64,000 nucleotides of DNA from Sulfuritalea sp. (GTDB lineage Bacteria; Pseudomonadota; Gammaproteobacteria; Burkholderiales; Rhodocyclaceae): positions 62,001-126,000 of the forward strand of contig NZ_JAFLDR010000008.1 in NCBI RefSeq assembly GCF_017302275.1, read 5' to 3'. The translations under genes and the position numbers were made by a program. Of this stretch, positions 2,888 to 62,738 are shown piece by piece (within the stretch, counting starts at the first letter, position 1; each line of letters begins with the position of its first letter). The notes below the pieces were generated by a model. That model had not been told where the DNA came from and did not search any database. It saw nothing but the letters and a program-made list of their open reading frames with translations.

Positions 2888-2912
2888 GAAAAGTCGGCGC
2901 AGGCGGAACGGC
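2888..2912 (+). repeat. Dispersed 25-bp motif, copy A (between radical SAM gene and queD)
   Basis: GAAAAGTCGGCG followed by CAGGCGGAACGGC. It lies in the divergent intergenic region. The queD -10 box TATAAT begins at 2926, so the 3' end of this copy falls roughly where a -35 box would be. See the finding on the nine-copy family. Confidence 0.8.
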
Positions 2913-2925
2913 ACGACGGCGCGGC

Positions 2926-2931
2926 TATAAT
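2926..2931 (+). promoter_or_regulatory. Probable -10 box (TATAAT) for queD
   Basis: A perfect TATAAT about 67 bp before the queD start codon. No clear consensus -35; the expected position overlaps the 25-bp motif copy A. Confidence 0.5.
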
Positions 2932-2997
2932 GCGCGCCAGCTGGCTCACCGGCCCCCGGACCACGAACACTTTGCCACAATCCCGGCTCTCCCGACC

Positions 2998-3450
2998 ATG
3001 CGCATCACCCGTCGCCTCGAATTCGATGCGGGTCATCGAATCCCGAATCACCAAAGCCAGTGCCGTCACCTGCATGGCCACCGCTATGCGCTCGAAGTCA
3101 CCCTCGCCGGTGGCGTCATCGAAGCAGCAGGCCGGCCGGATGACGGCATGGTGATGGACTTTTCAGAGGTCAAGGCCATCGCCAAGCGCCATGTGGTCGA
3201 CGTCTGGGACCATGCCTTCCTGGTCTGGTGCGACGACACCACCGTGGCCGACTTTCTTGCCGGCATCATCGGACACAAGACCGTGCTGCTCGACACAGTA
3301 CCCACTGCGGAAAACCTGGCGCGCACTGCGTTCGCCATCCTCGATCCGCTGTATCGGGACATTTACGGCACCCATCTGCACCTGGAGCGGATCCGGCTCT
3401 ACGAAACCCCCAATTGCTGGGCCGATGCGAGTCGGGACGACCTGGGCTGA
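2998..3450 (+). CDS. queD: 6-carboxytetrahydropterin synthase (6-pyruvoyl-tetrahydropterin synthase family)
   Basis: Converts 7,8-dihydroneopterin triphosphate to 6-carboxy-tetrahydropterin, the second step to preQ0 and queuosine in tRNA. The 150-residue protein has the zinc site His13, His26 and His28 and the nucleophilic Cys22 in QCRHLHGH, with a conserved TVPTAENLA segment and a late Glu-rich strand. The start at 2998 gives the usual family length. Divergent from the radical SAM gene. Confidence 0.9.
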   Translation: MRITRRLEFDAGHRIPNHQSQCRHLHGHRYALEVTLAGGVIEAAGRPDDGMVMDFSEVKAIAKRHVVDVWDHAFLVWCDDTTVADFLAGIIGHKTVLLDTVPTAENLARTAFAILDPLYRDIYGTHLHLERIRLYETPNCWADASRDDLG

Positions 3451-3601
3451 TCCATTCCTTGCGGCGCGCGGACCGGAAATGGTTCCACGCAGCGGAACTA
3501 GCCGATGCGGGACGACGTCCTGATTGTTTCGGGGTAATTCCAATGCTAAGGTTGTCTCCCGGTCTGGCGCACGACCAGGACGACCGAGAGGAGGAGTTCC
3601 C

Positions 3602-5227
<1,626 letters not shown>

Positions 5228-5228
5228 A

Positions 5229-5894
5229 TTGACGACACCGATCACCCTCTGCGGCTTCTCCGTCAGCAACTACTACAACAAGGTCAAGCTCGCGCTGCTG
5301 GAGAAGGGCATCCCCTTCACCGAGGCGCAGGTCTTTCCGTCGCAGAGCGAGGAACTGCTGAGCGAGTCGCCGATGGGCAAGGTGCCTTTCATGCGCACTC
5401 CAATGGGCGTGCTCAGCGAATCGCAGGTGCTGACCGAGTTCATCGAGGACACCTGGCCGGAGCCGCCGCTTTATCCGCGCGACCCATTTGCCCGCGCCCG
5501 TTGCCGCGAACTGATCGAGCACATCGAGTTGCATCTCGAATTGCCGGCCCGGCGCCTTTATGGCGAAGCGTTCTTCGGCGGCAAGGCTTCCGAGGAAACC
5601 AAAAAGGAAGTCGCACCGTTGCTGGAGAAAGGCCTCAGGAGCCTGCATCGCCTCGCGCGTTTTTCGCCCTTCATCGCCGGCAGCGACTTTACCCACGCCG
5701 ACTGCGCAGCCTGGGTGCATCTGCCGCTGGTCAGCCAGTCCACGCGCAAGATCTACGACCGCGATTTCGTCGAGGAGTTGGTGCCGCAGGCCAAGGCCTA
5801 CCTGAAACTGGTCGGCGAACGTCCCCACGCGCAGAGGATCAATGACGACCGCAAGGCAACCATGGACGCGTTCATGTCGCGGCCGAAGAAATGA
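5229..5894 (+). CDS. Glutathione S-transferase family protein
   Basis: A 221-residue protein with an N-terminal thioredoxin-like GST domain (LCGFSVSNYYNKVKLALLEK, then SPMGKVPFM, then ESQVLTEFIE) and an all-helical C-terminal domain. The start is taken as TTG at 5229, one base after the stop of the upstream ligase, with AGGGAG just before; no in-frame ATG fits the domain start. The end overlaps the next gene as ATGA. Reaction unknown; co-transcription with acyl-CoA genes suggests a role in the same catabolic route. Confidence 0.85.
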   Translation: MTTPITLCGFSVSNYYNKVKLALLEKGIPFTEAQVFPSQSEELLSESPMGKVPFMRTPMGVLSESQVLTEFIEDTWPEPPLYPRDPFARARCRELIEHIELHLELPARRLYGEAFFGGKASEETKKEVAPLLEKGLRSLHRLARFSPFIAGSDFTHADCAAWVHLPLVSQSTRKIYDRDFVEELVPQAKAYLKLVGERPHAQRINDDRKATMDAFMSRPKK

Positions 5895-6670
5895 ACGCGA
5901 TGGTCCGCACCCAGCTTGCCGATGGTGTGTTCCACCTGGAGATGGCACGCCCCGAAAAGAAGAACGCGCTCACCGCGGCGATGTACCGGACACTGGCTGA
6001 CGCGCTTGCCGGCGCCGACGCCGATCCTGCCGTGCAGGTGATCCTGATATCCGGCGCGGGCGGCAACTTCACCGCAGGCAACGACCTGGCCGACTTCCTC
6101 GCCACGCCGCCGATGGACGAAAGCGCACCGGTGTACCATTTCATCCAGGGCTTCGCCAAGCTGCAGAAGCCCTTCGTTGCCGCCGTCGAAGGCGTCGCCA
6201 TCGGGGTCGGCACCACCCTGCTGCTGCACTGCGACCTGGCCTATGCCGGAGCCGGCGCCCGCTTCGCCGTGCCCTTTGCCAATCTCGGCCTGACCCCCGA
6301 GGCCGCCTCCAGCCTGCTGCTGCCGCTGCGCGCCGGCCATGCCCGCGCCGCCGAAATGCTCATGCTGGGCGAAGTGTTCGGTGCGCAGGCTGCGCTTGAT
6401 GCCGGCATCGTCAATGCGGTGCTACCGGATGGCCAGGTGCTCGAACATGCCCTCGAACGCTGTCGCAAACTGACCACGCAGCCCGCCGCGTCCCTGCGCC
6501 TCACGAAGCAGTTGATGAAACGCGCGCAGAACACCATGGTGCGCGAGATCATGGACGTCGAAGCAGATGTATTCCGCCAGCGCCTGGTGTCTCCCGAAGC
6601 CAAGGAAGCATTCGCCGCATTCTTCGAAAAGCGCAAACCGGATTTCTCGCGTTTCAACCAGGACGGCTGA
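5891..6670 (+). CDS. Enoyl-CoA hydratase/isomerase family protein
   Basis: A 259-residue crotonase-fold protein, with the oxyanion-hole segments GGNFTAGNDLADF (about residues 57-69) and AVEGVAIGVGTTLLLHCDLAYA (two pieces, about 97-118). The usual first catalytic Glu position of hydratases reads LGLTPEAASS. It probably hydrates or isomerises an acyl-CoA double bond. The start overlaps the GST stop by ATGA. It ends 35 bp before tRNA-Ser. Confidence 0.92.
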   Translation: MNAMVRTQLADGVFHLEMARPEKKNALTAAMYRTLADALAGADADPAVQVILISGAGGNFTAGNDLADFLATPPMDESAPVYHFIQGFAKLQKPFVAAVEGVAIGVGTTLLLHCDLAYAGAGARFAVPFANLGLTPEAASSLLLPLRAGHARAAEMLMLGEVFGAQAALDAGIVNAVLPDGQVLEHALERCRKLTTQPAASLRLTKQLMKRAQNTMVREIMDVEADVFRQRLVSPEAKEAFAAFFEKRKPDFSRFNQDG

Positions 6671-6705
6671 AAAGCCGACACGCTGTTAAAATCCGCAGCC
6701 ACGCT

Positions 6706-6795
6706 GGAAGCGTGGCAGAGTGGTCGATTGCACCGGTCTTGAAAACCGGCAACGTCGCAAGGCGTTCGTGAGTTCGAATCTCACCGCTTCCGCCA
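6706..6795 (+). tRNA. tRNA-Ser(TGA)
   Basis: A 90-base cloverleaf with acceptor stem GGAAGCG/CGCTTCC, anticodon loop CTTGAAA (anticodon TGA), a long variable arm typical of class II serine tRNA, a GTTCGAATC T-loop and encoded CCA. It decodes UCA. Confidence 0.97.
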
Positions 6796-7112
6796 AAAGT
6801 CCGGCAATGGCAAGGCGTTTCAGGCGACGAATCGAGATACCCACCAAAACGGCCATCAATTGGTGTAGTGCTGGTATCGCCACTGAACTCGGTTGCCCCT
6901 TCCAGCGATGGGATCACCGTTCCGCCAGCGCCGACTATCGCCCTTAGGCACCAGCACCAAAGCCGGCACCTGGAAAAGTACCGGGAAATACTTTGTTGCA
7001 GGCCGGGAACCAGTAAAGGGATCCTCACCACGACGGTCTCGCGCATAAACCGGCAGGAGATCTGACGTGCAAACTGGCGCAAGAGCGATACGGTAGCCAG
7101 CGCCATGGATCA
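6796..7112. other. 317-bp stretch with no convincing gene
   Basis: Follows tRNA-Ser and precedes the end of a minus-strand membrane protein gene. Two minus-strand frames are open through it but one runs antisense across the tRNA and neither has a ribosome binding site or a recognisable domain. It contains copy H of the dispersed 25-bp motif at 6916-6940. No clear hairpin terminator was seen. Confidence 0.5.
6916..6940 (-). repeat. Dispersed 25-bp motif, copy H (downstream of tRNA-Ser)
   Basis: On the minus strand it reads CGATAGTCGGCG followed by CTGGCGGAACGGT. The final base is T rather than C and the first five bases are divergent; all other fixed positions match. Confidence 0.65.
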
Positions 7113-7619
7113 CTACTTGATCGTCCATTCGTCGCCGCATTTGCGACATTTCGCTCGAAACCAGACGCCGCCGCCACGATCCTCCAGCACGGGATCGCCA
7201 CCGTCGGGAAGTGGCGCCGGCCCTGATGAAACGACCTTGAAACTGCCATAGTCGCTGCATGCCGGACATACGGCCTGCTGGCCAAGGTGCTCGGCTACAT
7301 CGAGCAGCAAACGGTAGCGCTTCCAGCTGAACAGCGTGACAGCCAGTCCGCCCAGCAGCAGCGATACTCCGGTCAATCTGGATCCGCCGCCCGCTCCGGC
7401 CAACTCGAGGCCGCTGACAAGGAGGATCAGGCCAAGGAACCAGGTGAGCAGCCATGCATGACATTCGATCAACTGTCGCTCGTACCAGCGCCGAAATCCG
7501 TGCGTGCGTATGCGATCGAGCGAAGCCACCAAAGTCCCTCTCTGTCGGTCCGCAACCAGCTTAGACGCCTTGCTCGGGCCATGCAACATGGTTTGGCAAT
7601 GAATGGCCGGCGAAAGCAC
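7113..7619 (-). CDS. Hypothetical two-helix membrane protein with C-terminal zinc ribbon
   Basis: Up to 168 residues; an internal ATG at 7589 may be the true start. Two hydrophobic stretches (about residues 52-70 and 80-97) suggest a hairpin in the inner membrane. The C-terminal part carries two Cys pairs, CPACSDYG and CRKC, likely a zinc ribbon in the cytoplasm. I do not recognise a named family. It is divergent from the Bax-inhibitor-like gene. Confidence 0.6.
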   Translation of the reverse strand: MLSPAIHCQTMLHGPSKASKLVADRQRGTLVASLDRIRTHGFRRWYERQLIECHAWLLTWFLGLILLVSGLELAGAGGGSRLTGVSLLLGGLAVTLFSWKRYRLLLDVAEHLGQQAVCPACSDYGSFKVVSSGPAPLPDGGDPVLEDRGGGVWFRAKCRKCGDEWTIK

Positions 7620-7658
7620 ACCCGTGGCGGCCGAAGGTGCCGGTCGAGTCTGGCAGGC

Positions 7659-7664
7659 TATAAT
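7659..7664 (+). promoter_or_regulatory. Probable -10 box (TATAAT) for the Bax-inhibitor-like gene
   Basis: A perfect TATAAT in the context GGCTATAATGG about 95 bp before the start codon. No strong -35. Confidence 0.45.
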
Positions 7665-7759
7665 GGCCCTACGGTGCCCCGCCTCGTTTTTTCTGGGAAC
7701 TCGTGGAGTTCTTGCCCGTCAAATCAAGCGGACTCATCTCACAGGAGGTACAAGCGTCC

Positions 7760-8452
7760 ATGGAAAACATTCGCACCTACCCGCAATCCGCGACCCAGGA
7801 TATTGCAGGAGAGCAGCAACGCGTCCTGCGCAATACTTATGCCCTGCTTGCACTTTCGATGGCACCAACGGTGGCCGGGTCGCTGATCGGCATACAGTTG
7901 AAGTTCTCGTTCCTGGCAGGTAGCCCGTTCATCGCCTTCATGCTCTTCCTCGGTGTGGCATTCGCTTTCATGTGGGGTATCGAGCGCACCAAGAACAGCG
8001 GCATGGGCGTTGCACTGTTGCTGGGCTTTACCTTTTTCATGGGGCTCATGCTTTCCCGCATCCTGCAGGCGGCGCTCGGGTTCGCCAATGGCGGCACGTT
8101 GATCGCAATGGCCGCCGGCGGCACGGGGGCGATTTTTGTCTCCCTGGCGGGAGTCGCATCCACGACCAAACGAGATTTTTCCAATCTTGGCAAGTTCCTG
8201 TTTTCCGGAATGATCTTGCTGCTGGTCGCCATCGTGGCGAATATCTTTTTCCAGATTCCCGCCTTGGCGCTGGCAATTTCAGCGATCGCGGTGGTGATCT
8301 TTTCCGCCTATATCCTGTACGACATCAATCGCATCGTTCATGGCGGCGAAACCAATTACATCACCGCCACGCTGGCCGTCTACCTCGACATCTACAACGT
8401 GTTTGTCAGCCTGCTGAACTTGCTGATGGCGTTTTCCGGCGATCGCGACTGA
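7760..8452 (+). CDS. Bax inhibitor-1 (UPF0005/YccA-like) integral membrane protein
   Basis: A 230-residue protein with about seven hydrophobic segments, an Arg-rich short cytoplasmic N-terminus and the family's typical late segment SAYILYDINRIVHGGETNYI, followed by TATLAVYLDIYNVF. ATG at 7760 is preceded by ACAGGAGGT, a near-perfect ribosome binding site, so the longer upstream frame is rejected. The E. coli relative YccA modulates FtsH proteolysis; that role here is inference. Confidence 0.9.
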   Translation: MENIRTYPQSATQDIAGEQQRVLRNTYALLALSMAPTVAGSLIGIQLKFSFLAGSPFIAFMLFLGVAFAFMWGIERTKNSGMGVALLLGFTFFMGLMLSRILQAALGFANGGTLIAMAAGGTGAIFVSLAGVASTTKRDFSNLGKFLFSGMILLLVAIVANIFFQIPALALAISAIAVVIFSAYILYDINRIVHGGETNYITATLAVYLDIYNVFVSLLNLLMAFSGDRD

Positions 8453-8470
8453 CGCGGTCGAGCCACGCGC

Positions 8471-8495
8471 AAAAAGTCGGCGTTGGCGCTACGGC
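8471..8495 (+). repeat. Dispersed 25-bp motif, copy B (between two convergent genes)
   Basis: AAAAAGTCGGCG followed by TTGGCGCTACGGC. It begins 18 bp after the Bax-inhibitor-like stop codon and ends 10 bp before the bidirectional terminator. Confidence 0.8.
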
Positions 8496-8505
8496 GCAGG
8501 CGAGC

Positions 8506-8533
8506 GAAAACGGCGGCCTGAGTCGCCGTTTTC
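8506..8533. terminator. Bidirectional intrinsic terminator
   Basis: Perfect ten-base stem GAAAACGGCG / CGCCGTTTTC with an eight-base loop between convergent genes. A run of A on one side and T on the other lets it serve both strands. Confidence 0.85.
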
Positions 8534-8536
8534 ATT

Positions 8537-9841
8537 TCAGAGTTCGCGCTCGAACAGCGCGATTGATTCGAGGTGCGACGTATGCGGAAACATGTTGGCA
8601 ATACCCGCTGCACGCAAGCGATACCCCTTCTCATGTACCAACACCGCGGCATCCCGCGCGAGCGTGGCGGGACTGCACGACACGTAGACGATGCGGCGCG
8701 GACCGCCTTCCGACGGCAATGACTTGACGAGGGCTATCGCGCCTTCGCGTGGCGGATCGATCAGCACTTTGTCGAACTCGCCCAGTGCGGCAAAACTTTC
8801 GTCCGTCACCTCGAATAGATTGGCGACCGAAAACTCGCATTGCGCGTCCAGACGGTTCAGTGCAGCGTTCCCCCGAGCGCGATCCACCAAGGCGGCGCTT
8901 CCCTCGATCCCCACAACCCTTGCGCCGAGCCGCGCGATCGGCAAGGTAAAGTTACCCAGGCCGCAAAACAGGTCCGCAATCCGTTCGCCTCCCCGCGGCG
9001 CCAGGAGCGCCATGGCACGCCGCACCAACATGCGGTTCACGCCATGATTCACTTGGGTGAACTCCGTCGGATGAAACCGGAGTTCGAGACCGTAGTCCGG
9101 AAGCTCGTAGCTCGGCATGGGCGCAGCGGAGGGATGAAAAACGCGCACGCTGTCCAGACCTTTCGGCTGCAGATACCAAGTGATCCGACGGGCATCGGCA
9201 AATCGTTGCAACCGGTCCAGGTCGGCGGCTGCCAGCGGTTCAAGATGGCGCAACAGCAACACGGTTTCAGCGCCGCCAATCGCAACCTCGATCTGCGGCA
9301 TGCGATCCGGCCGCGTCATCCCTTCGACAAGCTCTTTCAGCGCCGGAATCAGCGCGGAGACATGGGGTGGCAAGACGCCACAGGAATCCATCAACGCCAC
9401 ATAGCTGCTGTGTTTCTCCCGAAATCCGACCAGCGTGCCCCCCTTGCTGGCAACGTAACGAACGGAGAGGCGTGCACGCAGGCGATAGCCCCATGCCGTA
9501 CCGGAGATGGGCGGTAGAACCTGGTCCGGCCGAAGTCGGGCGAGATGCCACAGCGCATCTTCCAATACCCGCTGCTTGGCCGCCGTCTGTCCCGCGGGAT
9601 GAAGATGCTGCATGGAGCATCCGCCGCAGGTGCCAAAATGCGGACAGGATGGAACCACGCGCTGGCTTGATGCTTTTAAGACCCGTACGACATGGGCCTT
9701 TTCGTAACTGGGCTTGCGCCGATAGCTGGCGTATTCGACAAGTTCGCCGGGCAAGGCGCCGTCGATGAAAATCGCCTTGCCATCGACATGGGAAATGCCT
9801 CTCCCCTCGTGGTCAAGGGATTCGATTTGTGCCAGTGGCAT
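8537..9841 (-). CDS. rlmD: 23S rRNA (uracil-1939-C5)-methyltransferase
   Basis: A 434-residue SAM-dependent RNA methyltransferase. An N-terminal TRAM domain binds RNA. A 4Fe-4S site follows ([10 protein letters not shown] near residues 64-73 plus the Cys in MDSCGVL). The SAM motif [13 protein letters not shown] is near 290 and the catalytic Cys lies in [10 protein letters not shown] near 390. Length and motif order fit RlmD rather than TrmA or RlmCD. Confidence 0.93.
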
Positions 9842-9875
9842 GATAAGGTCGTGACCGCGGACAAAGGGCGACGAT

Positions 9876-9881
9876 TATAAT
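9876..9881 (+). promoter_or_regulatory. Probable -10 box (TATAAT)
   Basis: TATAAT about 100 bp upstream of the start at 9984, with a weak GTGACC -35 candidate 19 bp earlier. Confidence 0.45.
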
Positions 9882-9983
9882 GCGCTCCCGCGCTGCGGCC
9901 TTGCTGGCTTCAAGGGACCGGAATCACCTGGCGTATTTTCCTCAACCAGTTGCGACGCGAGCGTCGCGAAGAAGGAGAGTCGA

Positions 9984-10478: not shown

Positions 10479-10616
10479 TTTTCCGCGGCGGCATGCTGCC
10501 ATTTGCCGTGGAGCACCATCAATTTAGTCGTGATAAAATTCTCGGCTGATCGAAGTGGAAACATTCCGGTCGACCAATTGGCCAAGTAACTCCATAACGT
10601 TAAGGATCCTATCAAA

Positions 10617-10997: not shown

Positions 10998-11023
10998 ATC
11001 TTCAGACGCCTTTGGGCAAGAAG

Positions 11024-15001: not shown

Positions 15002-15922
<921 letters not shown>

Positions 15923-18867: not shown

Positions 18868-19904
18868 CACGCGCCCTCCTCCTGGTGGCCGCGCTCGCTT
18901 TTGGCTCGATGCTGAATGCCCATGCGGCGGGCGCAATCCGTTCGGACAGCGGCTACGCGGAGCGCGACGAGGTGAAGGCTTTCATCGCGGAGATGCGGGA
19001 CAAGCATGGCTTCGACACGGAGGTGCTCGATGCCCTGTTCCGTCGAATTCGACCCCTGCCGGCCGTCATCAAGGCCATCATGCCGCCCAGGGATCCCGGC
19101 GTGCGCTCGTGGCAGGCCTACCGATCACGGTTTGTCGAACCCATCCGGATCGCCGCCGGCAGGCGCTTCATGCGCCTGCATTCCGTAGAGATCGCCGCCG
19201 CCGCGGCGCGCTTTGGCGTGCCGGCCGAAATCATCGCCGCCATCATCGGTGTCGAAACCATTTACGGCAGGCAACTGGGGCGCTTCGGCACCTTTGCCGC
19301 GCTCGCCACGCTGACCTTCGACTATCCGCCGCGGGCCGAGCTGTTCCGGCGGGAACTGGAGGAGCTGCTGCTGCTGGCGCGCGAGGAGAATCGCAGCCTG
19401 CTGTCCTACACCGGCTCCTATGCAGGTGCAATGGGTCTGCCGCAGTTCCTGCCATCGTCGCGGCGACGCTATGCGATCGACTTCGACGGTGACGGCCGCA
19501 TCGACCTGGTCGGCAGTCCCGCCGATGCAATCGCCAGTGTGGCCAGTTTCCTCGCCAGCCACGGCTGGCAAAAGGATGCGCCGATAGCCGTCGCCGTCAG
19601 TGTGGCCGGTTCCGGCGTGGAGGCGATGATCGCCCAAGGCATTGCGCCGCGACACACGCCGCGGCAGATGGAGGAAGCCAACATTGCTGTCGCAAGAGTC
19701 GGCGCCGGCGATACGGCGACGCAACATCTCGGCGACCTGTTGCCAGAGCACCCGGCGGCGCTGATCGATTTGGTGACACCGCAGGCAGCAACCGAGTACC
19801 GCCTCGGGTACCAGAACTTCTACGTGATCACGCGCTACAACCGGAGCAGCTTCTATGCGGCTGCGGTCATCGACCTCGCTGCCGCGCTGGCAAAATCAGA
19901 GTAG
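18864..19904 (+). CDS. mltB: Lytic murein transglycosylase B
   Basis: A 346-residue periplasmic enzyme that cleaves the glycan backbone of peptidoglycan. It starts at GTG 18864 overlapping the upstream stop (GTGA). A signal peptide (LLLVAALAFGSMLNAHAAG) precedes the SLT-2 fold: catalytic Glu in GVETIYGRQLG (about residue 130), then YAGAMGLPQFLPSS and FDGDGRIDL. No lipobox is seen, unlike E. coli MltB, so it may be soluble. Residues VGAGDTA near 277-283 are encoded by a copy of the 25-bp motif. The stop overlaps rpoS on the other strand by nine bases. Confidence 0.92.
   Translation: MTRALLLVAALAFGSMLNAHAAGAIRSDSGYAERDEVKAFIAEMRDKHGFDTEVLDALFRRIRPLPAVIKAIMPPRDPGVRSWQAYRSRFVEPIRIAAGRRFMRLHSVEIAAAAARFGVPAEIIAAIIGVETIYGRQLGRFGTFAALATLTFDYPPRAELFRRELEELLLLAREENRSLLSYTGSYAGAMGLPQFLPSSRRRYAIDFDGDGRIDLVGSPADAIASVASFLASHGWQKDAPIAVAVSVAGSGVEAMIAQGIAPRHTPRQMEEANIAVARVGAGDTATQHLGDLLPEHPAALIDLVTPQAATEYRLGYQNFYVITRYNRSSFYAAAVIDLAAALAKSE
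19693..19717 (+). repeat. Dispersed 25-bp motif, copy G (inside mltB)
   Basis: CAAGAGTCGGCG followed by CCGGCGATACGGC. Read in frame as V-G-A-G-D-T-A in the C-terminal region of MltB. Confidence 0.75.
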
Positions 19905-23292: not shown

Positions 23293-24429
23293 ATGGAAAT
23301 CATCCTGCACGGGTCGGCCTTCGACATCCCCGACGACGAATGGAGAGCGCTCGACCACGGTGACGACCCGTTCGTCAGTCGCGCCTTCCTCGGCACGGCG
23401 GAAGAAGTCGGCGCTGGCGGCACGGCAATGGGATGGCAGGCCCAGCATCTCGCCCTGCATGACGGCGGCCGGCTGCTCGGACTGTTGCCGCTCTACCTGC
23501 GCACGCATTCTTTCGGCGACTTTTCACGCGACTGGAACTGGGCCTCGGCCTGGCAGCGCGCCGGCATCGACTACTACCCGAAGCTGGTCAGCGGCGTACC
23601 CTATACGCCCTCGCCGGGTCCGCGCCTGCTGGTCCGGCGCGATGCGGAGCGTGAGATCGTCGCGCCGGCGCTGATCGAAGCCGCGCTGGAACTGGTGGCC
23701 CGGTACCACGTGTCATCCTGGCAATGCCTGTTTGTCCGCGAAGAAGACCGCGCGCGGCTGGAAGCGGCCGGCTTGTTGATGCGGCGTGGAGTGCAGTTCC
23801 ACTGGTTCAATCAGAAGTATCGCGATTTCGATGATTTCCTCGCCGGCTTCACTTCCGAAAAGCGCAAGAAACTCAAGCGTGAGCGGCGCGCGGTCGCCGC
23901 ATCCGGATTGCGGATCGAAGCCCTGCATGGCGACGAGATCGATGCCGACCTATGGCTGGCGATCCACCGCCACTACCGCGACACGTTCGCCCGCTACGGC
24001 AACCATCCGGCCTTTCCCCCCGAATTCTTCAGCCAGGCCGGTGCCCTGCTCGGCCGGCGCATGGTGGTATTCATTGCTTTCCGGGAACGCATTCCGATCG
24101 CGTCGGCGATCTGCTACCGCGACGCCGGAACGCTTTACGGCCGGCACTGGGGCTGCGCCATGGAGGTTCCCGGCCTGCATTTCGAACTTTGCTACTACCA
24201 GGGAATCGACTACTGCATCTGTAACGGCTTGCAGCGTTTCGAACCCGGCGCGCAGGGAGAACACAAGCTGGCCCGCGGCTTCGAGCCGGTGCCGACTTGG
24301 TCGGCATTCTGGATCGCCGATCCGCGCATGCGGCAAGCCGTGGCGGACTTCGTCATGCGCGAAGACGCCGCGATGCAGGACTACGAAGCCGAAACCGCCA
24401 GCCGTCTGCCCTTCCGGCAGGAGGCTTGA
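23293..24429 (+). CDS. FemAB-like/GNAT acyltransferase (peptidogalycan biosynthesis family, DUF482)
   Basis: A 378-residue protein. N-terminal [15 protein letters not shown], central [30 protein letters not shown] and late [23 protein letters not shown] match the widespread proteobacterial family related to FemAB transferases. Biochemical role is not settled. ATG at 23293 lies 146 bp into a region divergent from surE. Residues VGAGGTA near 38-44 fall on a copy of the 25-bp motif. Confidence 0.85.
23402..23426 (+). repeat. Dispersed 25-bp motif, copy C (inside the FemAB-like gene)
   Basis: AAGAAGTCGGCG followed by CTGGCGGCACGGC. Read in frame as V-G-A-G-G-T-A, the same frame as the mltB copy. 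Confidence 0.75.
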
Positions 24430-24788: not shown

Positions 24789-24813
24789 AAAAGTCGGCGC
24801 CGACGATACGGCA
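24789..24813 (+). repeat. Dispersed 25-bp motif, copy D (upstream of the element's left end)
   Basis: GAAAAGTCGGCG followed by CCGACGATACGGC, intergenic, between a small minus-strand gene and the left repeat of the integrated element. Confidence 0.8.
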
Positions 24814-39117: not shown

Positions 39118-40600
<1,483 letters not shown>

Positions 40601-44196: not shown

Positions 44197-44637
44197 TGGA
44201 AGCTCCAAAAGCGGTCACGCATGGACTACAGACTGGAATTATGCCTGTAACTTAATCCATCCGCGGATCGCTCGAAAAATCCCCCGTATGGCAAATCTTG
44301 ACCGTCTCGGCCGATCTCACAACAGTCGGCGCTGACGGGACGGCAACTACGTTGACGCTCGCTGCATCCCGAAAAGTTCCCACGCCCGCCGAAAGCCTTG
44401 ATTTGACGGGGTGTTACCCAATCACTTAGTCAGATCAAAATACACGGCAATCGGAGAACATGACGCTATTCGGTGGGTCGTGCGATTTCTCGGTCGACTC
44501 TGAATTCCGGCCGGTTAGGTCGTTGCCCAAAGCTGGCTTCCGCGTTTCGCCATTCGGGACGTTGGCTCGGGGCGATAACGACGCGCGAATCCGGTTCTTT
44601 CGCGATGAGATCAAGGCAGCAAAAATGGAGACGTAAG
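44197..44637. other. 441-bp intergenic region before the outer-membrane barrel gene
   Basis: Holds copy F of the 25-bp motif (44320-44344) and a possible -35 TTGACG at 44403. No open frame with a ribosome binding site. Confidence 0.5.
44320..44344 (+). repeat. Dispersed 25-bp motif, copy F (intergenic)
   Basis: CAACAGTCGGCG followed by CTGACGGGACGGC. Confidence 0.75.
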
Positions 44638-55778: not shown

Positions 55779-55844
55779 GAATTGCCAGCCCTTGCGTTGA
55801 ATTGTCCGCCATCTCCGAACTCCTTGGTAGCCGGAGATGAAAGC

Positions 55845-55871
55845 AAAAAACCCGCCGAAGCGGGTTTTTTG
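55845..55871. terminator. Intrinsic terminator after the PEP-CTERM gene
   Basis: AAAAAACCCGC, four-base loop, GCGGGTTTTTT: seven or more paired bases flanked by A and T runs, able to work on both strands. Separates the PEP-CTERM gene from gspC. Confidence 0.9.
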
Positions 55872-55888
55872 TTCAGAGCAAATGCCAG

Positions 55889-56617
55889 TTAGGCCGTGGC
55901 AGACTGCTTGCGACGTCGGGCAACGAAACCCATCAGACCCAGACCGGCAAGCAGCATCGCGTAGGTTTCGGGTTCCGGAACCGCATTAACACCGATCACG
56001 AAGTCGTCCCAATCGCCCAAGGTTGCTTGACCGGCGCTGTCGTTGTAGCCGAGAACGTAGGCGTAAGTCTTACCCGCGACAACCATATTGGTACCGATCA
56101 GGCCAATGGAAGTTGTGTCCGACCAGCCAGCAACACCTGCGGGACTCCAAGCAGCATGAAGCACGCGATCATTGTAGGCCCTGTTTACGCCATAGGTATT
56201 GTCACCTTCGAACATGAAGTCGACCGCGCCGGCGCTGGTCATTTGAAGATTAATCGAAGTCACCCCAAGCACGCTTGGAACATACCCGGTAGGGACCCGA
56301 CTAGGGTTGTCGGAGTCATCGTAAAGCGTGGCCCCACCTACGTACAAGCTCTTAAGAACATTGTCGTAGGCAGCTTCCGATCCAAGATAGGTAAACCGCA
56401 ACTCCATTGCAGAGTCGGCCATGAGCGCACCCGTACTAACTAAAGACCCCGAACCACGCGCGGCGACATCCGCCGCTGAAAAAGCGGTGTCGATACCATT
56501 GCCGGGCTTACCAAAAGCTTCAGTGCGGGTCTCCGTGGAAAGAACCGAGAACGACAACCCGGCGTTGGCGGCGCCGGTGGCAGCGAGTAGCGCTGTTGCA
56601 AAAATAATACGTTTCAT
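55889..56617 (-). CDS. PEP-CTERM sorting-domain protein (secreted)
   Basis: A 242-residue protein. Signal peptide (FATALLAATGAANAG), an unremarkable beta-rich body and a C-terminal sorting signal: VPEPETYAMLLAGLGLMG followed by FVARRRKQ. The PEP motif, hydrophobic helix and Arg cluster are what exosortases recognise. GGAGGG precedes ATG 56617. Upstream (56618-56792) has no other gene. Likely a surface or biofilm protein; no enzyme motif seen. Confidence 0.92.
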   Translation of the reverse strand: MKRIIFATALLAATGAANAGLSFSVLSTETRTEAFGKPGNGIDTAFSAADVAARGSGSLVSTGALMADSAMELRFTYLGSEAAYDNVLKSLYVGGATLYDDSDNPSRVPTGYVPSVLGVTSINLQMTSAGAVDFMFEGDNTYGVNRAYNDRVLHAAWSPAGVAGWSDTTSIGLIGTNMVVAGKTYAYVLGYNDSAGQATLGDWDDFVIGVNAVPEPETYAMLLAGLGLMGFVARRRKQSATA

Positions 56618-56792
56618 GTTAGCAACCCTCCATACAGAAATTAACCAACTCGCCAACCTACCCAACGAGCCCTGCCTTACACATCTGGTTAAATTATTGC
56701 ACGGCGTTTTCGCCTCTGCAATGATCCGTTCGGACTAATCGTACCAAGTACCGTGGGTCTCGAAGCGCAAGACCTCACACACCGAATGGAGC

Positions 56793-58211
56793 TCAATAGG
56801 CGCTTGACTGCCCCCGGGCAATTACCAGTATCGTCTTGAAAATAATGTAAATATCCAGGCGCAATGACCAGTTCCGCAGGTAGTCGAGGTCGTATTCGAC
56901 GCGGCCACGCATCTTTTCGACGGTTTCAGTTTCGCCGCGATAGCCGTTTACCTGCGCCCAACCCGTGATACCCGGCCGCACCTTGTGGCGAACCATATAA
57001 CCCTTAATGATCTTGCGATAAAGTTCGTTATGCGCCACCGCATGCGGACGCGGTCCAACTATGCTCATTCGCCCTTGTAACACGTTGAAGAACTGTGGTA
57101 ATTCATCAAGAGAAGTACGCCGCAGAAACGCACCTAGCGGCGTAATGCGGCTGTCCCCTTTTTGCGCCTGGCGGATACTGTCTCCATCCTCGCAAACCGT
57201 CATCGAACGAAACTTGTAAACCAAGATCTCTGCTCCATCAAGGCCGTAGCGGCGCTGTTTAAAGATAACAGGCCCCGGTGAAGTGAGCTTTACCCCGATG
57301 GAAACGGCAACCAGCAATGGCGAAATGATCAGTAAAATGACAATGGCAAGAACTATGTCGCTGATCCTCTTTACCAATCCATCCGCCCCGCGAAATGGGG
57401 TTTCACAAACTGCGACAACCGGCATGCCACAAACCATGTCGATCCGACCTTGGATAAGGTCAGTAACGAAAAAGTCGGGTACGAAATAGATTGAGGCGGT
57501 GGTATCTCGCATGTCATCCAACAGATCCAGTATTCGCGGCTGTGATGCCATCGGTAGCGAAATGTAGATAGTTTGGACGTGCCGAGACTTGATGAAAGGT
57601 GCGAGATCGGCGATTCGTCCCAGCAGCGGAAACATGTCGTCGCCATTAAGCCTATCCATTTTCCTGTCATCGAAAAAACCTAACAAATGGGTAGATCCGT
57701 AAGGGCTTTCCGAGATGCGTCGCGCCAGCGCAAGACCTTGATCGTTCATTCCGACAATCACTGTGGGGCGGGAAGTCCCATCGACTTCCGAAAAAAACGG
57801 TGCCATGAAACGAATAAGCAAATGGGCCACGATCTGTGCAAGCGGGGCCACCCATAGATAGGCAAATACCAGATTCTTCGGGAATATGCGCAGGTACCTG
57901 CTGGCATAGCCTAGTAACATCAGCAACGCGGCAAGCAGAAGCCAACCAAGAACGATATTCCGGGCTGCGCGCCAAAGTGGCTGATCGAGCCTGGCGGACC
58001 CCGGAAAAGTCAATGCAAAAAGTACCACTGACAAGATCAGGTACTGCGGCAGCAACTCACCTTCAAAATAAACAGCGACCATCCAAAGTGACAGTACCAA
58101 CGCCAGAGGCTCAAGAAGAGCCTCGGCAATGTCCAGCAAGTTGTCTCTTCCAATGGTAAGGGTAGACGCGCGTCGAAAACGCGACGCAACGCTTTTCCCG
58201 GACTCAGGCAT
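56793..58211 (-). CDS. epsB: Undecaprenyl-phosphate glucose phosphotransferase (EpsB/WcaJ type)
   Basis: A 472-residue initiating glycosyltransferase of exopolysaccharide synthesis. Four N-terminal membrane helices, a CoA-binding-like domain (TVIVGMNDQGLALARRISE) and the C-terminal bacterial sugar transferase domain (KRISDIVLAIVILLIISPLL, KLTSPGPVIFKQRRYG, LDELPQFFNVLQGRMSIVGPRP). Transfers a sugar-1-phosphate, probably glucose, to undecaprenyl phosphate. Overlaps the upstream regulator gene by eight bases. Confidence 0.93.
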   Translation of the reverse strand: MPESGKSVASRFRRASTLTIGRDNLLDIAEALLEPLALVLSLWMVAVYFEGELLPQYLILSVVLFALTFPGSARLDQPLWRAARNIVLGWLLLAALLMLLGYASRYLRIFPKNLVFAYLWVAPLAQIVAHLLIRFMAPFFSEVDGTSRPTVIVGMNDQGLALARRISESPYGSTHLLGFFDDRKMDRLNGDDMFPLLGRIADLAPFIKSRHVQTIYISLPMASQPRILDLLDDMRDTTASIYFVPDFFVTDLIQGRIDMVCGMPVVAVCETPFRGADGLVKRISDIVLAIVILLIISPLLVAVSIGVKLTSPGPVIFKQRRYGLDGAEILVYKFRSMTVCEDGDSIRQAQKGDSRITPLGAFLRRTSLDELPQFFNVLQGRMSIVGPRPHAVAHNELYRKIIKGYMVRHKVRPGITGWAQVNGYRGETETVEKMRGRVEYDLDYLRNWSLRLDIYIIFKTILVIARGQSSAY

Positions 58212-59067
58212 CTTGCTTCAGCCGATTGAGTTTCTCAACTGCTTGGGCGCGATTGGATGCATCCAATTTTCTGAAAATTCGCTGCAGATGATTCTTAACC
58301 GTGAATGCGCTGATATTCAGAATCATCGCGACTTCAAAATTTGTCTTGCCGATACGCACCCATTCCATGATCTCAACCTCTCTTTGGCTAAGGCCTGACA
58401 GATCACCGGATTCGTCTTTTACAGACGCATTCGAACTGGTATCGTCGCCCTGAATTGGAAGATGGGAAACCTGCCGCAGGCTATGATCCAGATAGGGCAG
58501 GAAGAATCGCAGACTGCGCCGGTAAACTGTATCGGACAGATCCTTGGAACTCAGGAATATATATATGCATTCAAGCTTTCCACGCTGATCGCTGAATCCA
58601 TGGACCAAACTCGACCGCATGCTGCCAAGAAGTTTTGCCGCGTCGCGATCGCAACGCTGGCAGATAAAGGCAAAATCGTCTTCAGTTGTAGTCTTGAGGG
58701 CCACATAAGGACGACACCGATGGCCCAGCCATCGATCCCGCATATCCAATAAGAACGAAAACGCACCGCACCGCCTTGTTCCTATCGGCTTGCTATCTTC
58801 GAGACACATCGAAACTCCGCTAGGGCTCAGGTTGCCAAACCCGTACTTTCCTTCCGGCCGCAAATGAGGGGATGCAGATAGAATATTGAAAGTAATACTG
58901 CTTGCACCAAAATCACCCCACGCGGCAATGAGGACTTCATGGGGAAGAAAGCTCTGGACGTCGCCCTGTAACCACTGAACCAAATCACGATGATCCCGGA
59001 TACGAAGCGACGCCTCCGCCGTCTGCAGAATTCCTATCCCGTCGTTATGAATGTTTACATCACGCAT
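58204..59067 (-). CDS. epsA: LuxR-type regulator EpsA (exosortase-B/PEP-CTERM associated)
   Basis: A 287-residue regulator. A long N-terminal sensor-like part without an obvious autoinducer motif and a C-terminal LuxR HTH (GLSQREVEIMEWVRIGKTNF, then EVAMILNISAFTVKNHLQRI). Co-transcribed with epsB and matches the regulator seen at the start of exosortase-B loci. It probably activates the exopolysaccharide genes. Confidence 0.88.
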   Translation of the reverse strand: MRDVNIHNDGIGILQTAEASLRIRDHRDLVQWLQGDVQSFLPHEVLIAAWGDFGASSITFNILSASPHLRPEGKYGFGNLSPSGVSMCLEDSKPIGTRRCGAFSFLLDMRDRWLGHRCRPYVALKTTTEDDFAFICQRCDRDAAKLLGSMRSSLVHGFSDQRGKLECIYIFLSSKDLSDTVYRRSLRFFLPYLDHSLRQVSHLPIQGDDTSSNASVKDESGDLSGLSQREVEIMEWVRIGKTNFEVAMILNISAFTVKNHLQRIFRKLDASNRAQAVEKLNRLKQDA

Positions 59068-59681
59068 TACTGTCCGACGGATACCCTAAAAAATGCGCAT
59101 ACCGGAAGTGCGACATGCCCCATCCGAGCAATCCGCAAAAAATAACAGGTAACCAAAAAGATCTCATCGCTGTCTGTGAGCGCGAACAAGCCTTCCATCA
59201 AAAACCACCCACGTGACGTCGACAACAATAGCGGCGCTAACACCGACAAACTGAGCGCCCAGACTGCCTTTCCTTGCTACCTCATAAGTATCATTGTAAT
59301 GGACTTGCTTGAAAGAATTCTGACGTTCATCTCAATTTTCCGAACTCAATATCGTGGCAACACTTTCGAACGCAGGTCGTTGCATTACGGCGCGCTTTTC
59401 CTGCAAAATCTCAAACAGACACCAGTCCCAAACACTTCACAGGAACCGGCAACCCGCGAGCACGCAATTAACTGTAAATCAATGAGTCAATTGGCTTAGG
59501 ATTTGCCTCATAGATTGACGCGCCTTCATCCAGATTTTCCCTGAACTTTTTCCAAACCGCTCCGAGGTTTCCCGTTATGGCTAACCCAAGCCCAGCAAGA
59601 TGGAAAAATTGCACCAAAAGTGGTAACTTGTCGCTACACTGAATTGCATTGGTATTCTTTTGGATAGCCGTTAAACTGGAA
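59068..59681. promoter_or_regulatory. 614-bp divergent intergenic region upstream of epsA and the cyclic-nucleotide-binding gene
   Basis: AT-richer than its surroundings, with no gene I can support. It should hold the promoters for both directions. A loose inverted repeat (TCAATGAG ... CTCATAGATTGA) lies at about 59480-59520. No sigma-54 -24/-12 pair was seen with correct spacing. Confidence 0.4.
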
Positions 59682-60263
59682 ATGCCACGCGACGCACACG
59701 GAAACCATCTTCCGGAGGAAATGCCCAGCATTAACCTGAACAGGCCTTTGCTGTCTGCTTTGGAAGGTTTCGCCAGTTTGGGTAGCGCGTCGCGGTACGA
59801 GGAAGAGATATTTGGAATAATCGATCACATAACGCTGTTCGAGGATCTTCGCTATGCCGAGATCTCACAGCTTTGCTCGAAAATGGAGTGTTATTGCGCC
59901 AACCGCGGCGACGTGATCATGAAAGAAAATGAAGACGGTGATTTTCTTGTAATCGTCCTTACCGGAGAGGTTGCGGTTGTAAAGCAGGGTGCCGCCGGCG
60001 AGGAAAAACAGTTAGCCGTCGTCGGACCCGGGGCTTCACTGGGTGAGATGTCCCTAATCAACGGCAAGCCGAGATTTGCTACGTGCATCGCCAGAGAGCC
60101 AACCGATATTGCCGTCCTGACTAGAGATACCATTTACGATATCCTCGTGTTGCATCCGTCGTTGGGCAACAAGATACTGTTGATCCTCCTGCAGATCACT
60201 TCCCAGCGCTTGCGAGAAACCAGCGACCGACTGCTCCCATTTATTGGCAGCGCAGCAAGTTGA
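59682..60263 (+). CDS. Cyclic-nucleotide-binding domain protein
   Basis: A 193-residue protein with one Crp-type cNMP domain (about residues 50-165): GDVIMKENEDGDFLVIVLTG, GEMSLINGKPRFATCIARE (phosphate-binding cassette) and late RLRETSDRLLPF. No HTH follows, so it is not a classical DNA-binding Crp. The start at 59682 is uncertain: ATG 59721 has GGAGG too close. It precedes epsL with no gap, so it belongs to the exopolysaccharide locus and may sense c-di-GMP or cAMP. Confidence 0.85.
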   Translation: MPRDAHGNHLPEEMPSINLNRPLLSALEGFASLGSASRYEEEIFGIIDHITLFEDLRYAEISQLCSKMECYCANRGDVIMKENEDGDFLVIVLTGEVAVVKQGAAGEEKQLAVVGPGASLGEMSLINGKPRFATCIAREPTDIAVLTRDTIYDILVLHPSLGNKILLILLQITSQRLRETSDRLLPFIGSAAS

Positions 60264-61442
60264 ATGAGCGCGGTTGATCGGGTGCACTTCTGCCTAGGTG
60301 CGCTGCTTGTTCTCGCGATCACTCCTGCAGTGGCAGGAGTTGAGGACTTGTTTGCAGCCAATGTGGTCGTATCCCGTACCTATTTCGACAATCTATTCAA
60401 ACGCTCGTCGGATGCAGGCGTATCACGCGACCAACTCACTTCGACCCAGGTTACGGTCGCAGCCCGTAAATCGGTATCATTACAGGGCTTTGACCTGAGC
60501 GCGACCCTGGTCGACAATAGGTATCGAAAATTCGATTCACTGAACTCTCAGAACAACAACTACAGTGCTGCTTGGCGATGGCAGGTCACGCCGCATCTGA
60601 CGGGAACCATCAGTTCCTCGCGTCAGCAATCGCAATCCGACTTTGCTGATTTCCGAGGTACCGGACAGAATCTACGCACTTCCGAATCGCGCCGCGCAAA
60701 TGCCGAGTGGAACATCATTGGCGGCTGGACAGTGGGAACAGGATTGACGCAATCGAAGCAAATCAATAGCCAAACCTTTGTCGAGGATGCAAGTAACGAA
60801 CAACGAGTCGCCGACGTGCTGGTCCGCTATGCTTTTCTGTCAGGAACGACGATCGCGCTGAATCGCAGCAAGAGCAATGGAGACTTTTCGCGCGCCCCCA
60901 ATCCACTGACTCTGAGCGATAGTCGATTTTCCGACACACGCGAGGACTTTAGCCTAGCTTGGCCGGTAACTGGCAAAACGAGACTGACAGCTGGCTTGGG
61001 CCGCGTATCTAGGCAATACAAAAATTTTGGCGTTCGCGATTTCGCTGGACGGAACGGCAATCTCAGCCTTGCGTGGGCGGCTACAGCCAAAACGAGTCTC
61101 ACGCTGGCTCGGACACGTACTACCGATAGCTGGGAAGATACAGCAAGCAGTTTTGCTATACGCAACTTAACCGATCTGTCGGGAAACGTCCTGCTGAGCG
61201 GAAAATTGTCCATGCGTGCAAGCATAGGTCGCGAAACACGTACGTTCGGCGGATTCGCACTGGTTCCAGGGGCATTCAGCCGCATAGACAAGACCGGCAG
61301 GGAATCCCTCAGCTTGAGTTGGACGCCGATGCGCAGCGTAACGGTTACGGCATCCATCCAGCAGTCAAGACGTGCTTCAACGACTCCTGGGACCGATTAT
61401 TCGGACAGGTCAGCCACGATGAGCGCTACGGCTTCGTTTTGA
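60264..61442 (+). CDS. epsL: Outer-membrane exopolysaccharide protein EpsL (exosortase-B locus)
   Basis: A 392-residue protein. Signal peptide (LGALLVLAITPAVAGV), then repeated beta strands of a large outer-membrane barrel (DLSATLVDNRYRKFDS, late SLSLSWTPMRSVTVTASI) ending TMSATASF. Fits the EpsL family. ATG directly after the upstream TGA. Probably takes part in polysaccharide export. Confidence 0.88.
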   Translation: MSAVDRVHFCLGALLVLAITPAVAGVEDLFAANVVVSRTYFDNLFKRSSDAGVSRDQLTSTQVTVAARKSVSLQGFDLSATLVDNRYRKFDSLNSQNNNYSAAWRWQVTPHLTGTISSSRQQSQSDFADFRGTGQNLRTSESRRANAEWNIIGGWTVGTGLTQSKQINSQTFVEDASNEQRVADVLVRYAFLSGTTIALNRSKSNGDFSRAPNPLTLSDSRFSDTREDFSLAWPVTGKTRLTAGLGRVSRQYKNFGVRDFAGRNGNLSLAWAATAKTSLTLARTRTTDSWEDTASSFAIRNLTDLSGNVLLSGKLSMRASIGRETRTFGGFALVPGAFSRIDKTGRESLSLSWTPMRSVTVTASIQQSRRASTTPGTDYSDRSATMSATASF

Positions 61443-61579
61443 TCCGAACGGTGCGGACAATTGACATCGACAGGTCAATTGACTAAATACCGACAACGAC
61501 TATTATGTGGCCCCACGACAGTCATCGAGTCAATCAAAATTTGGCAACATCCAACGTAGCATCCTTGAAAGTGAACACT
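61443..61579. other. 137-bp gap between epsL and epsD
   Basis: No gene or strong hairpin. Contains palindrome-like TTGACATCGACAGGTCAA near 61460. Confidence 0.4.
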
Positions 61580-62572
61580 ATGCAATCTCATCGAATCGGA
61601 ATCCTTGCCAGCACGATTCTCGTTTCCTCGCTTGCCATCATGGGCTGTGACAAAAAAGAGGAAAAGGCCAAAAAGCCGTCTACGCAAATAGTAGCAAAGG
61701 TGGACTCGGAAGAGATTTCCGTCCATCAGTTGAACTCGGTGCTTTCAAAATCCAGTGGACTTACCCGAGAGAACGTCGGTCAAGCAAAGTGGGAAGTCCT
61801 CGGCAAACTCATCGAACAACAACTGGCAGTAAATAAGGCGCTTGAGCGTCGCCTTGACCGCAAGCCGGAAGTCCTGATGGCCATAGAAAATGCCCGACGC
61901 GAAATTCTCGCGCGCGCCTACCTGCAGGAACTTGCCGCTGCGCAGACCAAACCGACGACTGAGGAAATCAGAACCTACTACGACGCGCATCCGGAACTGT
62001 TTTCCGCACGGCGGATTTATCGCCTTCAAGAACTTACATTGCAGAAGAATGACGAACTAATGCCAGCATTGCGCGACAAGGTGGCCAGCAGCAAGAGCAT
62101 GGAAGATATCGCCGCCTGGCTCAAGAGCAGAAACATTCCGTTCAAGGCCGGTGGCGGTGTTCGCGCTGCGGAACAACTTCCCATGGAGGTTCTGCCAAAA
62201 GTACATGCAATGAAGGACGGACAAATTTCTCTGATTGCATCCACAGAAGGCGCCGTAATTATCCGCGTTGCGGGTTCCGAATCGCAACCGGTCGATGAAG
62301 CGAAAAGTGCGCCCCGGATCCAGACATTCTTGAGCAACCAGCGTTCTTCCGAAGCCATCCAGCGCGAAATGAAAGCGCTCAAGGAAAAAGCAAAAATCGA
62401 ATACCTCGGTGAGTTTGCAGGTGGCGTGCCACCAAAACCAGTTGAACCGCCACCCCCTCCGCCCAAGCCGGCCGCGCCCCCAAAGCGCATTGAGGCCCCT
62501 CCGCCGAAGCCCTCCGCAGCACCAGCGGCCGACAGCAAACTGATCGAAAAGGGAATCTCCGGTCTGAAATAG
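61580..62572 (+). CDS. epsD: EpsD-family lipoprotein, peptidyl-prolyl cis-trans isomerase-like
   Basis: A 330-residue lipoprotein (signal peptide ending SSLAIMGC). It resembles SurA/PpiD-type parvulin: N-terminal NTF-like chaperone helices (VDSEEISVHQLNSVLS, REILARAYLQELAA), a rotamase region (about 135-225) and a Pro-rich tail. ATG 61580 is chosen for the signal peptide. Acts in the envelope, probably folding export components of the exopolysaccharide machine. Confidence 0.88.
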   Translation: MQSHRIGILASTILVSSLAIMGCDKKEEKAKKPSTQIVAKVDSEEISVHQLNSVLSKSSGLTRENVGQAKWEVLGKLIEQQLAVNKALERRLDRKPEVLMAIENARREILARAYLQELAAAQTKPTTEEIRTYYDAHPELFSARRIYRLQELTLQKNDELMPALRDKVASSKSMEDIAAWLKSRNIPFKAGGGVRAAEQLPMEVLPKVHAMKDGQISLIASTEGAVIIRVAGSESQPVDEAKSAPRIQTFLSNQRSSEAIQREMKALKEKAKIEYLGEFAGGVPPKPVEPPPPPPKPAAPPKRIEAPPPKPSAAPAADSKLIEKGISGLK

Positions 62573-62738
62573 GTGCTTCTGCCGCAGACAGAACTGGCTT
62601 CTGATCTGCAGCAGCGCTCGCTCTGCATTGCGAAGTCAGAAAACGCAGAAGACATTGCACTGGTCGGGCGCTCGCGTCGTATAACAATTCGAAATCCGAA
62701 AAGTCGGCGTCGGCAATACGGCAGTGAGATCACAAGGG
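62573..62738. other. 166-bp convergent gap with 25-bp motif
   Basis: Lies between the stops of epsD and epsI and contains copy E of the dispersed motif. No obvious terminator. Confidence 0.4.
62698..62722 (+). repeat. Dispersed 25-bp motif, copy E (between epsD and epsI)
   Basis: GAAAAGTCGGCG followed by TCGGCAATACGGC, in the convergent intergenic region. Confidence 0.8.

What the first reader, a model, noticed from the sequence alone, without database searches (positions are those of the whole stretch)
2888..62722. A dispersed, directional 25-bp motif in nine places across the window
Nine sites align without gaps: five variable bases ending A, then GTCGGCG, then Y-N-G-R-C-R-N-N and finally ACGG(C/T). 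In all nine, AGTCGGCG and ACGG are fixed at constant spacing. Coordinates: 2888, 8471, 19693, 23402, 24789, 44320 and 62698 on plus; 6916 and 39942 on minus. Six are intergenic, three lie in genes. Flanking DNA shows no shared sequence and the motif is not palindromic, so it is not a REP or terminator. Seven of nine point the same way whatever the gene direction, as expected for a chromosome-orienting, uptake or protein-binding signal. By fixed positions alone the expected number in random DNA of this length is far below one.
Basis: partly seen in the sequence, partly recalled or inferred. Interest (0 to 1): 0.75.

Follow-up and report, generated by a model that had tools for sequence, protein, structure and literature searches.

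The report
Probable DNA-uptake signature in Sulfuritalea relatives
A 26-letter DNA tag repeated hundreds of times through the genomes of Sulfuritalea-type freshwater bacteria, spelled differently in different lineages, looks like a 'self' label for taking up kin DNA, a trick so far described in only two other bacterial families.

Summary
All nine sites exist, plus a tenth (37498-37517, minus). The genome holds 592 copies (297/295 by strand; reversed control 0). A closed congeneric genome shows no replichore polarity, so the chromosome-orienting idea fails. The unit is about 26 bp, rAAAGTCGGCGCTGGCGnnACGGCGa, with no shared flanks. In two genome samples 60% and 72% of copies lie in genes, on either strand, below the coding fraction. 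Copies persist at orthologous positions while flanks diverge. All 31 genomes searched in the genus carry it (three reduced), and five other genera of the family strongly, but most genera do not. Lineages use distinct spellings, e.g. AGTTGGCG with 320-397 copies in three genomes. This matches the genome-wide signature of DNA uptake sequences in Neisseriaceae and Pasteurellaceae. My best reading is a third, independent family of uptake signal sequences. Uptake itself is inferred: ComEC and minor pilins are present, but no carrier-specific receptor was found, and reduced genomes keep ComEC. My searches found no paper linking uptake sequences to these bacteria.

The parts
2892..2912 (+). motif copy AGTCGGCGCAGGCGGAACGGC, probably intergenic upstream of a radical-SAM gene; orthologous copy at <=1 mismatch in 10 of 11 alignable relatives, 2 mismatches in the other
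6916..6936 (-). motif copy, intergenic, downstream of tRNA-Ser
8475..8495 (+). motif copy between convergent genes (Bax1-I family +, tRNA U5-methyltransferase family -); <=1 mismatch in 14 of 14 alignable relatives
19697..19717 (+). motif copy in a lytic transglycosylase (SLT_2) gene; <=1 mismatch in 10 of 17 alignable relatives, 2 mismatches in one, absent in six
23406..23426 (+). motif copy inside a FemAB-like gene; 3 alignable relatives with 0, 0 and 2 mismatches
24792..24812 (+). motif copy, intergenic
39942..39962 (-). motif copy inside pheS
44324..44344 (+). motif copy, intergenic
62702..62722 (+). motif copy, intergenic

Best explanation
The motif is a DNA uptake signal sequence, functionally like the DUS of Neisseriaceae and the USS of Pasteurellaceae but unrelated in sequence. 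A surface protein of the type IV pilus uptake machine is inferred to bind rAAAGTCGGCGCTGGCGnnACGGCGa on free double-stranded DNA, so kin DNA is taken up preferentially. Recombination of incoming copies then restores and spreads the motif (molecular drive), keeping hundreds of copies at permissive sites. When the receptor's specificity shifts, the whole genomic set follows, giving lineage dialects. Shown: copy number, extent of the motif, both-strand distribution without polarity, coding deficit, persistence at orthologous positions, dialects, restriction to part of the family. Inferred: receptor binding, biased uptake, drive.
For: 592 copies vs 0 in the reversed control. Mismatch spectrum over 14 fixed positions: G000 sample (438,825 b) 58 exact, 23 one-off, 22 two-off, against means 0, 0.5, 13.7 for 12 permuted patterns and 0, 1, 20 for the reversed one; G002 sample (400 kb) 63, 16, 23 against 0.1, 1.0, 15.6 and 0, 3, 19. 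Each half used alone recovers the other half. Genic 49 of 82 and 57 of 79 against coding fractions 0.831 and 0.873 (p 7e-7, 3e-4), 54 with and 52 against the gene, with phase bias. No polarity. Orthologous positions: 298 of 383 pairs at <=1 mismatch vs 83 of 1149 control windows; 19 of 19 distinct alignable places, about 12 independent loci, vs 1 of 27 control. Dialects: AGTTGGCG 320/363/397 copies in G001/G016/G027, 0-13 in the other 28, at the same orthologous places in G001 and G027; AGTCGGTG 16 of 21 in G061 and ACGGCA 17 of 20 in G132; AGTCGACG in 29 of 31 matches of G098. Own genome has ComEC and a minor pilin scoring to Pfam ComP_DUS beside a GspH/FimT pilin. Passages of PMC7811141, PMC3630211 and PMC12616744 describe DUS/USS as not inserted elements, underrepresented in coding DNA, relatively evenly spread and with clade dialects.
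Against: No uptake experiment exists here, and I found no report of competence in these species. The ComP_DUS-type pilin occurs in 112 of 121 family genomes, non-carriers included, and is not found in carrier G098; the FimT profile matches 120 of 121, with high scores in non-carriers (G135 204 bits) and weak ones in carriers G165 (89) and G091 (70). So no receptor tracks the motif. ComEC is found in 30 of 31 genus genomes, including the motif-poor G017 and G025; the one without a match, G030 (79% complete), is a carrier; and ComEC also rings in 10 of 14 control genomes. Density (1 per 6-7 kb) is lower than I recall for Neisseria or Haemophilus (about 1 per kb). With a longer pattern (20 fixed positions) exact copies do not outnumber one-offs in G000 (15 vs 24; G002 43 vs 21). 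Spacing in one of three G000 contigs is not more even than random.
Confidence: 0.75

Rival explanations
1. Genome-wide binding site of an intracellular chromosome-organising or nucleoid protein, each copy kept by ordinary selection; dialects follow changes in that protein.
For: Long, strictly spaced motif; positional persistence; spacing somewhat even in G002 (CV 0.75 vs 0.97 +/- 0.13) and in two of three G000 contigs.
Against: No polarity; about 600 copies of a site carrying more than 30 bits is more than I know for any such protein; three congeneric genomes hold far fewer copies; most sister genera lack it.
Confidence: 0.14
2. Self-recognition mark for defence or restriction-modification (protected or methylated site).
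For: High copy number, lineage spellings.
Against: Recognition sites of such systems are, as I recall, much shorter, and I know of none that selects for hundreds of 20-bp sites. The motif also occurs in IMG/VR contigs (158 sites in 1.06 Mb of loci fetched because they held at least one).
Confidence: 0.05
3. Dispersed mobile or palindromic repeat (REP/BIME, MITE, IS target).
For: Many dispersed copies.
Against: Conservation stops at about -3 and +22; not palindromic; copies sit inside pheS and pheT; in G001 and G027 another spelling occupies the same orthologous places.
Confidence: 0.02
4. Transcriptional operator or terminator element.
For: Enriched outside genes; 12 of 31 classifiable intergenic copies in G000 and 6 of 20 in G002 lie between convergent genes.
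Against: 106 of 161 copies are inside genes, on either strand.
Confidence: 0.04

Closest known systems
DNA uptake sequence (DUS) and its dialects, Neisseriaceae; receptor ComP
   Same: Hundreds of short copies genome-wide, genic and intergenic, clade-specific dialects with a shared inner core
   Different: Unrelated sequence; about 26 bp with a variable 2-base gap rather than a continuous motif of up to about 13 bases; lower density (recalled comparison); different bacterial family; uptake untested
Uptake signal sequence (USS), Pasteurellaceae
   Same: Extended discontinuous motif, coding deficit, not an inserted element
   Different: Unrelated, GC-rich sequence without the AT-rich downstream tracts; different class; lower density (recalled comparison)
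KOPS-type chromosome-orienting sequences (recalled)
   Same: Dispersed, non-palindromic, overrepresented
   Different: No replichore polarity; far longer

Membership tests
DNA uptake sequences as a functional class (DUS/USS) | Strong genome-wide overrepresentation of one short motif | tested here: met
   592 vs 0 control; 30 of 30 congeners above their control, the lowest G017 with 22
DNA uptake sequences as a functional class (DUS/USS) | Both orientations, no replichore polarity, coding deficit | tested here: met
   (gene calls by a home-made finder)
DNA uptake sequences as a functional class (DUS/USS) | Copies arise by substitution, are not inserted elements | tested here: inconclusive
   No shared flank and respelled copies at the same orthologous places speak for it; the origin of a single copy was not traced
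DNA uptake sequences as a functional class (DUS/USS) | Clade-specific dialects | tested here: met
   no tree was built
DNA uptake sequences as a functional class (DUS/USS) | Underrepresented in newly acquired DNA | tested here: inconclusive
   An 18.4-kb motif-free stretch of lower GC in the window is suggestive only
DNA uptake sequences as a functional class (DUS/USS) | Uptake machinery present (ComEC, type IV minor pilins) | tested here: met
   not specific to carriers; ComEA and DprA were not searched
DNA uptake sequences as a functional class (DUS/USS) | Cognate receptor that tracks the motif | tested here: inconclusive
   ComP_DUS and FimT profiles match carriers and non-carriers, and carrier G098 has no ComP_DUS match
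DNA uptake sequences as a functional class (DUS/USS) | Motif raises DNA uptake or transformation | not testable with these tools
   needs experiment
Neisserial DUS or pasteurellacean USS proper | Cores as printed: AAGTGCGGT or ACAAGCGGT (USS); CTG within the neisserial DUS | tested here: not met
   The consensus contains neither USS core quoted; CTG occurs but without the rest of the DUS (the DUS decamer is recalled)
KOPS-type orienting sequence | Skewed strand on each replichore | tested here: not met
   137 of 300 shuffles as polar as observed (100 sites listed of 120)
REP/BIME or mobile repeat | Palindrome or conserved larger unit | tested here: not met

The most novel reading that the evidence does not exclude
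A third, independently evolved family of self-DNA uptake sequences, outside Neisseriaceae and Pasteurellaceae: a 26-bp bipartite motif with at least five spellings across Sulfuritalea, Sulfurisoma, Rugosibacter and related genera of free-living betaproteobacteria, with natural lineages where it is eroding.
Probability: 0.72. Interest if true: 0.9.

Novelty: new variant of a known kind. Interest (0 to 1): 0.82.

Why it matters
Sequence-biased DNA uptake is described as a trait of species in two families, which mainly occur in mucosal habitats (PMC7811141, passages). A third case in free-living bacteria would suggest that uptake specificity evolves repeatedly and outside hosts. It would also give a natural series (standard spelling, other spellings, reduced, absent) to test whether the motifs spread by molecular drive and how receptor and motif co-evolve. 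It would make the motif a practical marker of DNA exchange among uncultivated Rhodocyclales: clusters of copies in otherwise motif-poor genomes (e.g. G135) look like acquired tracts.

Tried and rejected
Chromosome-orienting signal: rejected, strands mixed. The all-plus list for G002 was a listing artefact, shown, which lists minus sites among the same coordinates. Receptor by presence/absence: PF16732 and a FimT profile built from 12 sequences of carriers match carriers and non-carriers alike, so neither is claimed. A second ComP_DUS-scoring pilin in the AGTT genomes G001, G016, G027 first looked dialect-specific; similar, shorter pilins occur in G007, G018 and G091, so I dropped it. Loss of ComEC as cause of motif loss in G017, G021, G025: not supported (G021's hit is cut by a contig end). 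Rfam and tRNA scans of the window: two tRNAs only. PDB sequence search with the ComP_DUS-type pilin: type IV pilins in general.

Literature: 'DNA uptake sequence' + Rhodocyclales 0 papers; 'uptake sequence' + Rhodocyclaceae 0; 'uptake sequences' + 'natural transformation' + Sulfuritalea 0; the 14-mer AGTCGGCGCTGGCG 0; some searches gave listings in whose titles and abstract starts I saw no such claim. Only open-licence papers are held, so a subscription paper could be missed.
Full report
OBSERVATION. The nine sites are as reported (shuffles 0). A tenth copy lies at 37498-37517 minus. The window is G000:C78:62001-126000 of a 4.41-Mb genome in 88 contigs; the whole genome holds 297 forward and 295 reverse copies of AGTCGGCGNNNNCNNNACGG, while the same pattern read backwards occurs 0 times. 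That is one copy per 7.4 kb. Forty copies (from 30 loci and the window) give a consensus conserved from about -3 to +22, rAAAGTCGGCGCTGGCGnnACGGCGa, with nothing shared beyond. Using only the 5' half as the search seed recovers the 3' half, and the reverse, so the two halves are one unit.

WHO CARRIES IT. Thirty of 30 other genomes of the genus carry 22-556 strict copies; 30 genomes of other genera sampled with them carry 0-3. In 121 genomes of the family (up to two mismatches, 22-base pattern), 12 genomes of six genera hold 200 or more; next come G076 (40), G098 (31), G109 (18), G094 (14) and G166 (10), and the rest hold 8 or fewer, with controls of 0-3. Counts in 12 of those records: 151 in S. 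sediminicola, 112 and 131 in two Rugosibacter bins, 369 in a Sulfurisoma bin, 258-464 in six others, but 2 in a bin titled Zoogloea and 8 in one titled Sulfurimicrobium. That the genus is Sulfuritalea is my inference from these titles.

ANATOMY OF THE POPULATION OF COPIES. Over 14 fixed positions, the G000 sample (438,825 b) has 58 exact, 23 one-off and 22 two-off copies, against 0, 0.5 and 13.7 for the mean of 12 permuted patterns and 0, 1 and 20 for the reversed pattern; the G002 sample (400 kb) has 63, 16 and 23 against 0.1, 1.0 and 15.6, and 0, 3 and 19. Over 20 fixed positions the peak is less sharp: G000 15, 24, 17, 16 and G002 43, 21, 16, 7 copies at 0-3 mismatches. With a home-made gene finder, 49 of 82 copies (up to one mismatch) in the G000 sample and 57 of 79 in G002 lie inside genes, below the coding fractions 0.831 and 0.873 (p 7e-7 and 3e-4). 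Inside genes 54 run with and 52 against the gene, with biased reading phase. Genic copies in the window sit in pheS, pheT, a lytic transglycosylase gene and a FemAB-like gene. In the closed 3.80-Mb genome G002 strands are mixed; the best two-arc split of the 100 listed sites (of 120) is matched by 137 of 300 shuffles. Spacing: CV 0.75 in 400 kb of G002 against 0.97 +/- 0.13 at random; 0.73, 0.66 and 1.01 in three G000 contigs against 0.94 +/- 0.18, so evenness is only hinted at.

PERSISTENCE. The block around window 1-20000 is alignable in relatives, the main matches at about 73-85% identity. I fetched 20 stretches from 18 other genomes. Thirty-seven copies gave 383 usable pairwise comparisons: 298 keep the motif at one mismatch or less, against 83 of 1149 neighbouring control windows. 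These pairs are not independent; they concern a handful of loci, and queries were chosen for having the motif. A second test with further loci gave 27 pairs at 19 distinct alignable places (about 12 independent loci), of which 19 of 19 keep the motif, in one of the two spellings, at one mismatch or less; control 1 of 27. Pairs over 95% identical were dropped as likely the same genome, and only places whose flanks align were counted. At the locus of site 19697, six of 17 relatives lack it.

DIALECTS. Genomes G001, G016 and G027 are poor in the standard spelling (43, 57, 48) but hold 320, 363 and 397 copies of AGTTGGCGNNNNCNNNACGG, against 0-13 in the 28 others. In the syntenic block all recognisable copies of G001 and G027 are AGTTGGCG, at the same places where others have AGTCGGCG (G016 was not among the stretches). 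G061 uses AGTCGGTG (16 of 21) and G132 ends ACGGCA (17 of 20) where Sulfuritalea mostly ends ACGGCG (120 and 140 kb read). G098 has AGTCGACG in 29 of 31 matches. Departures at single loci occur in G011, G025, G029 and G030. G017, G021 and G025 hold reduced and apparently eroded sets: 22, 80 and 103 strict copies, but 95, 230 and 305 at up to three mismatches of the 22-base pattern, controls 8, 3 and 4. Coordinated respelling of hundreds of sites implies a trans-acting reader. No tree was built, so how often spellings changed is open.

MECHANISM. Published features of uptake sequences are: not inserted elements, accumulation through uptake bias plus recombination, underrepresentation in coding and newly acquired DNA, relatively even distribution, clade dialects with a shared inner core (passages of PMC7811141, PMC3630211 and PMC12616744 seen; I did not read the papers in full). 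The motif here shows the coding deficit and the dialects clearly, no inserted unit, some evenness, and only a hint on newly acquired DNA. The own genome has ComEC and, at C6, a minor pilin hitting Pfam ComP_DUS (42.8 bits, cut-off 27.3) beside a GspH/FimT pilin. Reader, binding and uptake bias remain inferred. Against: these pilins are as common in non-carriers (112 of 121 and 120 of 121 genomes); carrier G098 has no ComP_DUS match; carriers G165 and G091 match the FimT profile only weakly (89 and 70 bits) while non-carrier G135 scores 204; and the motif-poor G017 and G025 keep ComEC. So I name no receptor. The strongest rival is an intracellular chromosome-wide binding protein; it shares the persistence and dialect evidence but shows no polarity and does not easily explain reduction and patchy distribution.

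NOVELTY. The passages I saw state that strong sequence preference is found in species of two families, Pasteurellaceae and Neisseriaceae. My searches found no paper linking uptake sequences to these bacteria; only open-licence full texts are held. The consensus contains neither printed USS core nor the DUS (recalled). I therefore call it a new variant of a known kind, at about 0.75 confidence that it works by biased uptake.

Noticed in passing
window 44345-62701: An 18.4-kb stretch without any copy coincides with lower GC (0.51-0.58) and holds a type II secretion operon (GspD, E, F, K, L, M) next to a bacterial sugar-transferase gene; possibly acquired later. The gap alone is not remarkable.
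   Followed up: partly
G135:C1:1461265-1502264: Five of six near-matches of an otherwise motif-poor genome lie within 41 kb, as if a tract came from a carrier; G108:C50 and G109:C104 show similar clusters.
   Followed up: no
L148-L267 (IMG/VR contigs): The 120 viral-collection loci holding the motif carry 158 copies in 1.06 Mb; beyond the one that brought each in, about one per 28 kb, sparser than the host. Whether these are phage or host flanks was not checked.
   Followed up: partly
   Followed up: partly
L366 8543-10200 (G000:C6) and equivalents: Minor-pilin cluster with a ComP_DUS-type pilin and a long FimT, seen in most of the 33 pilin loci read and in two sequence types within the genus.
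   Followed up: partly
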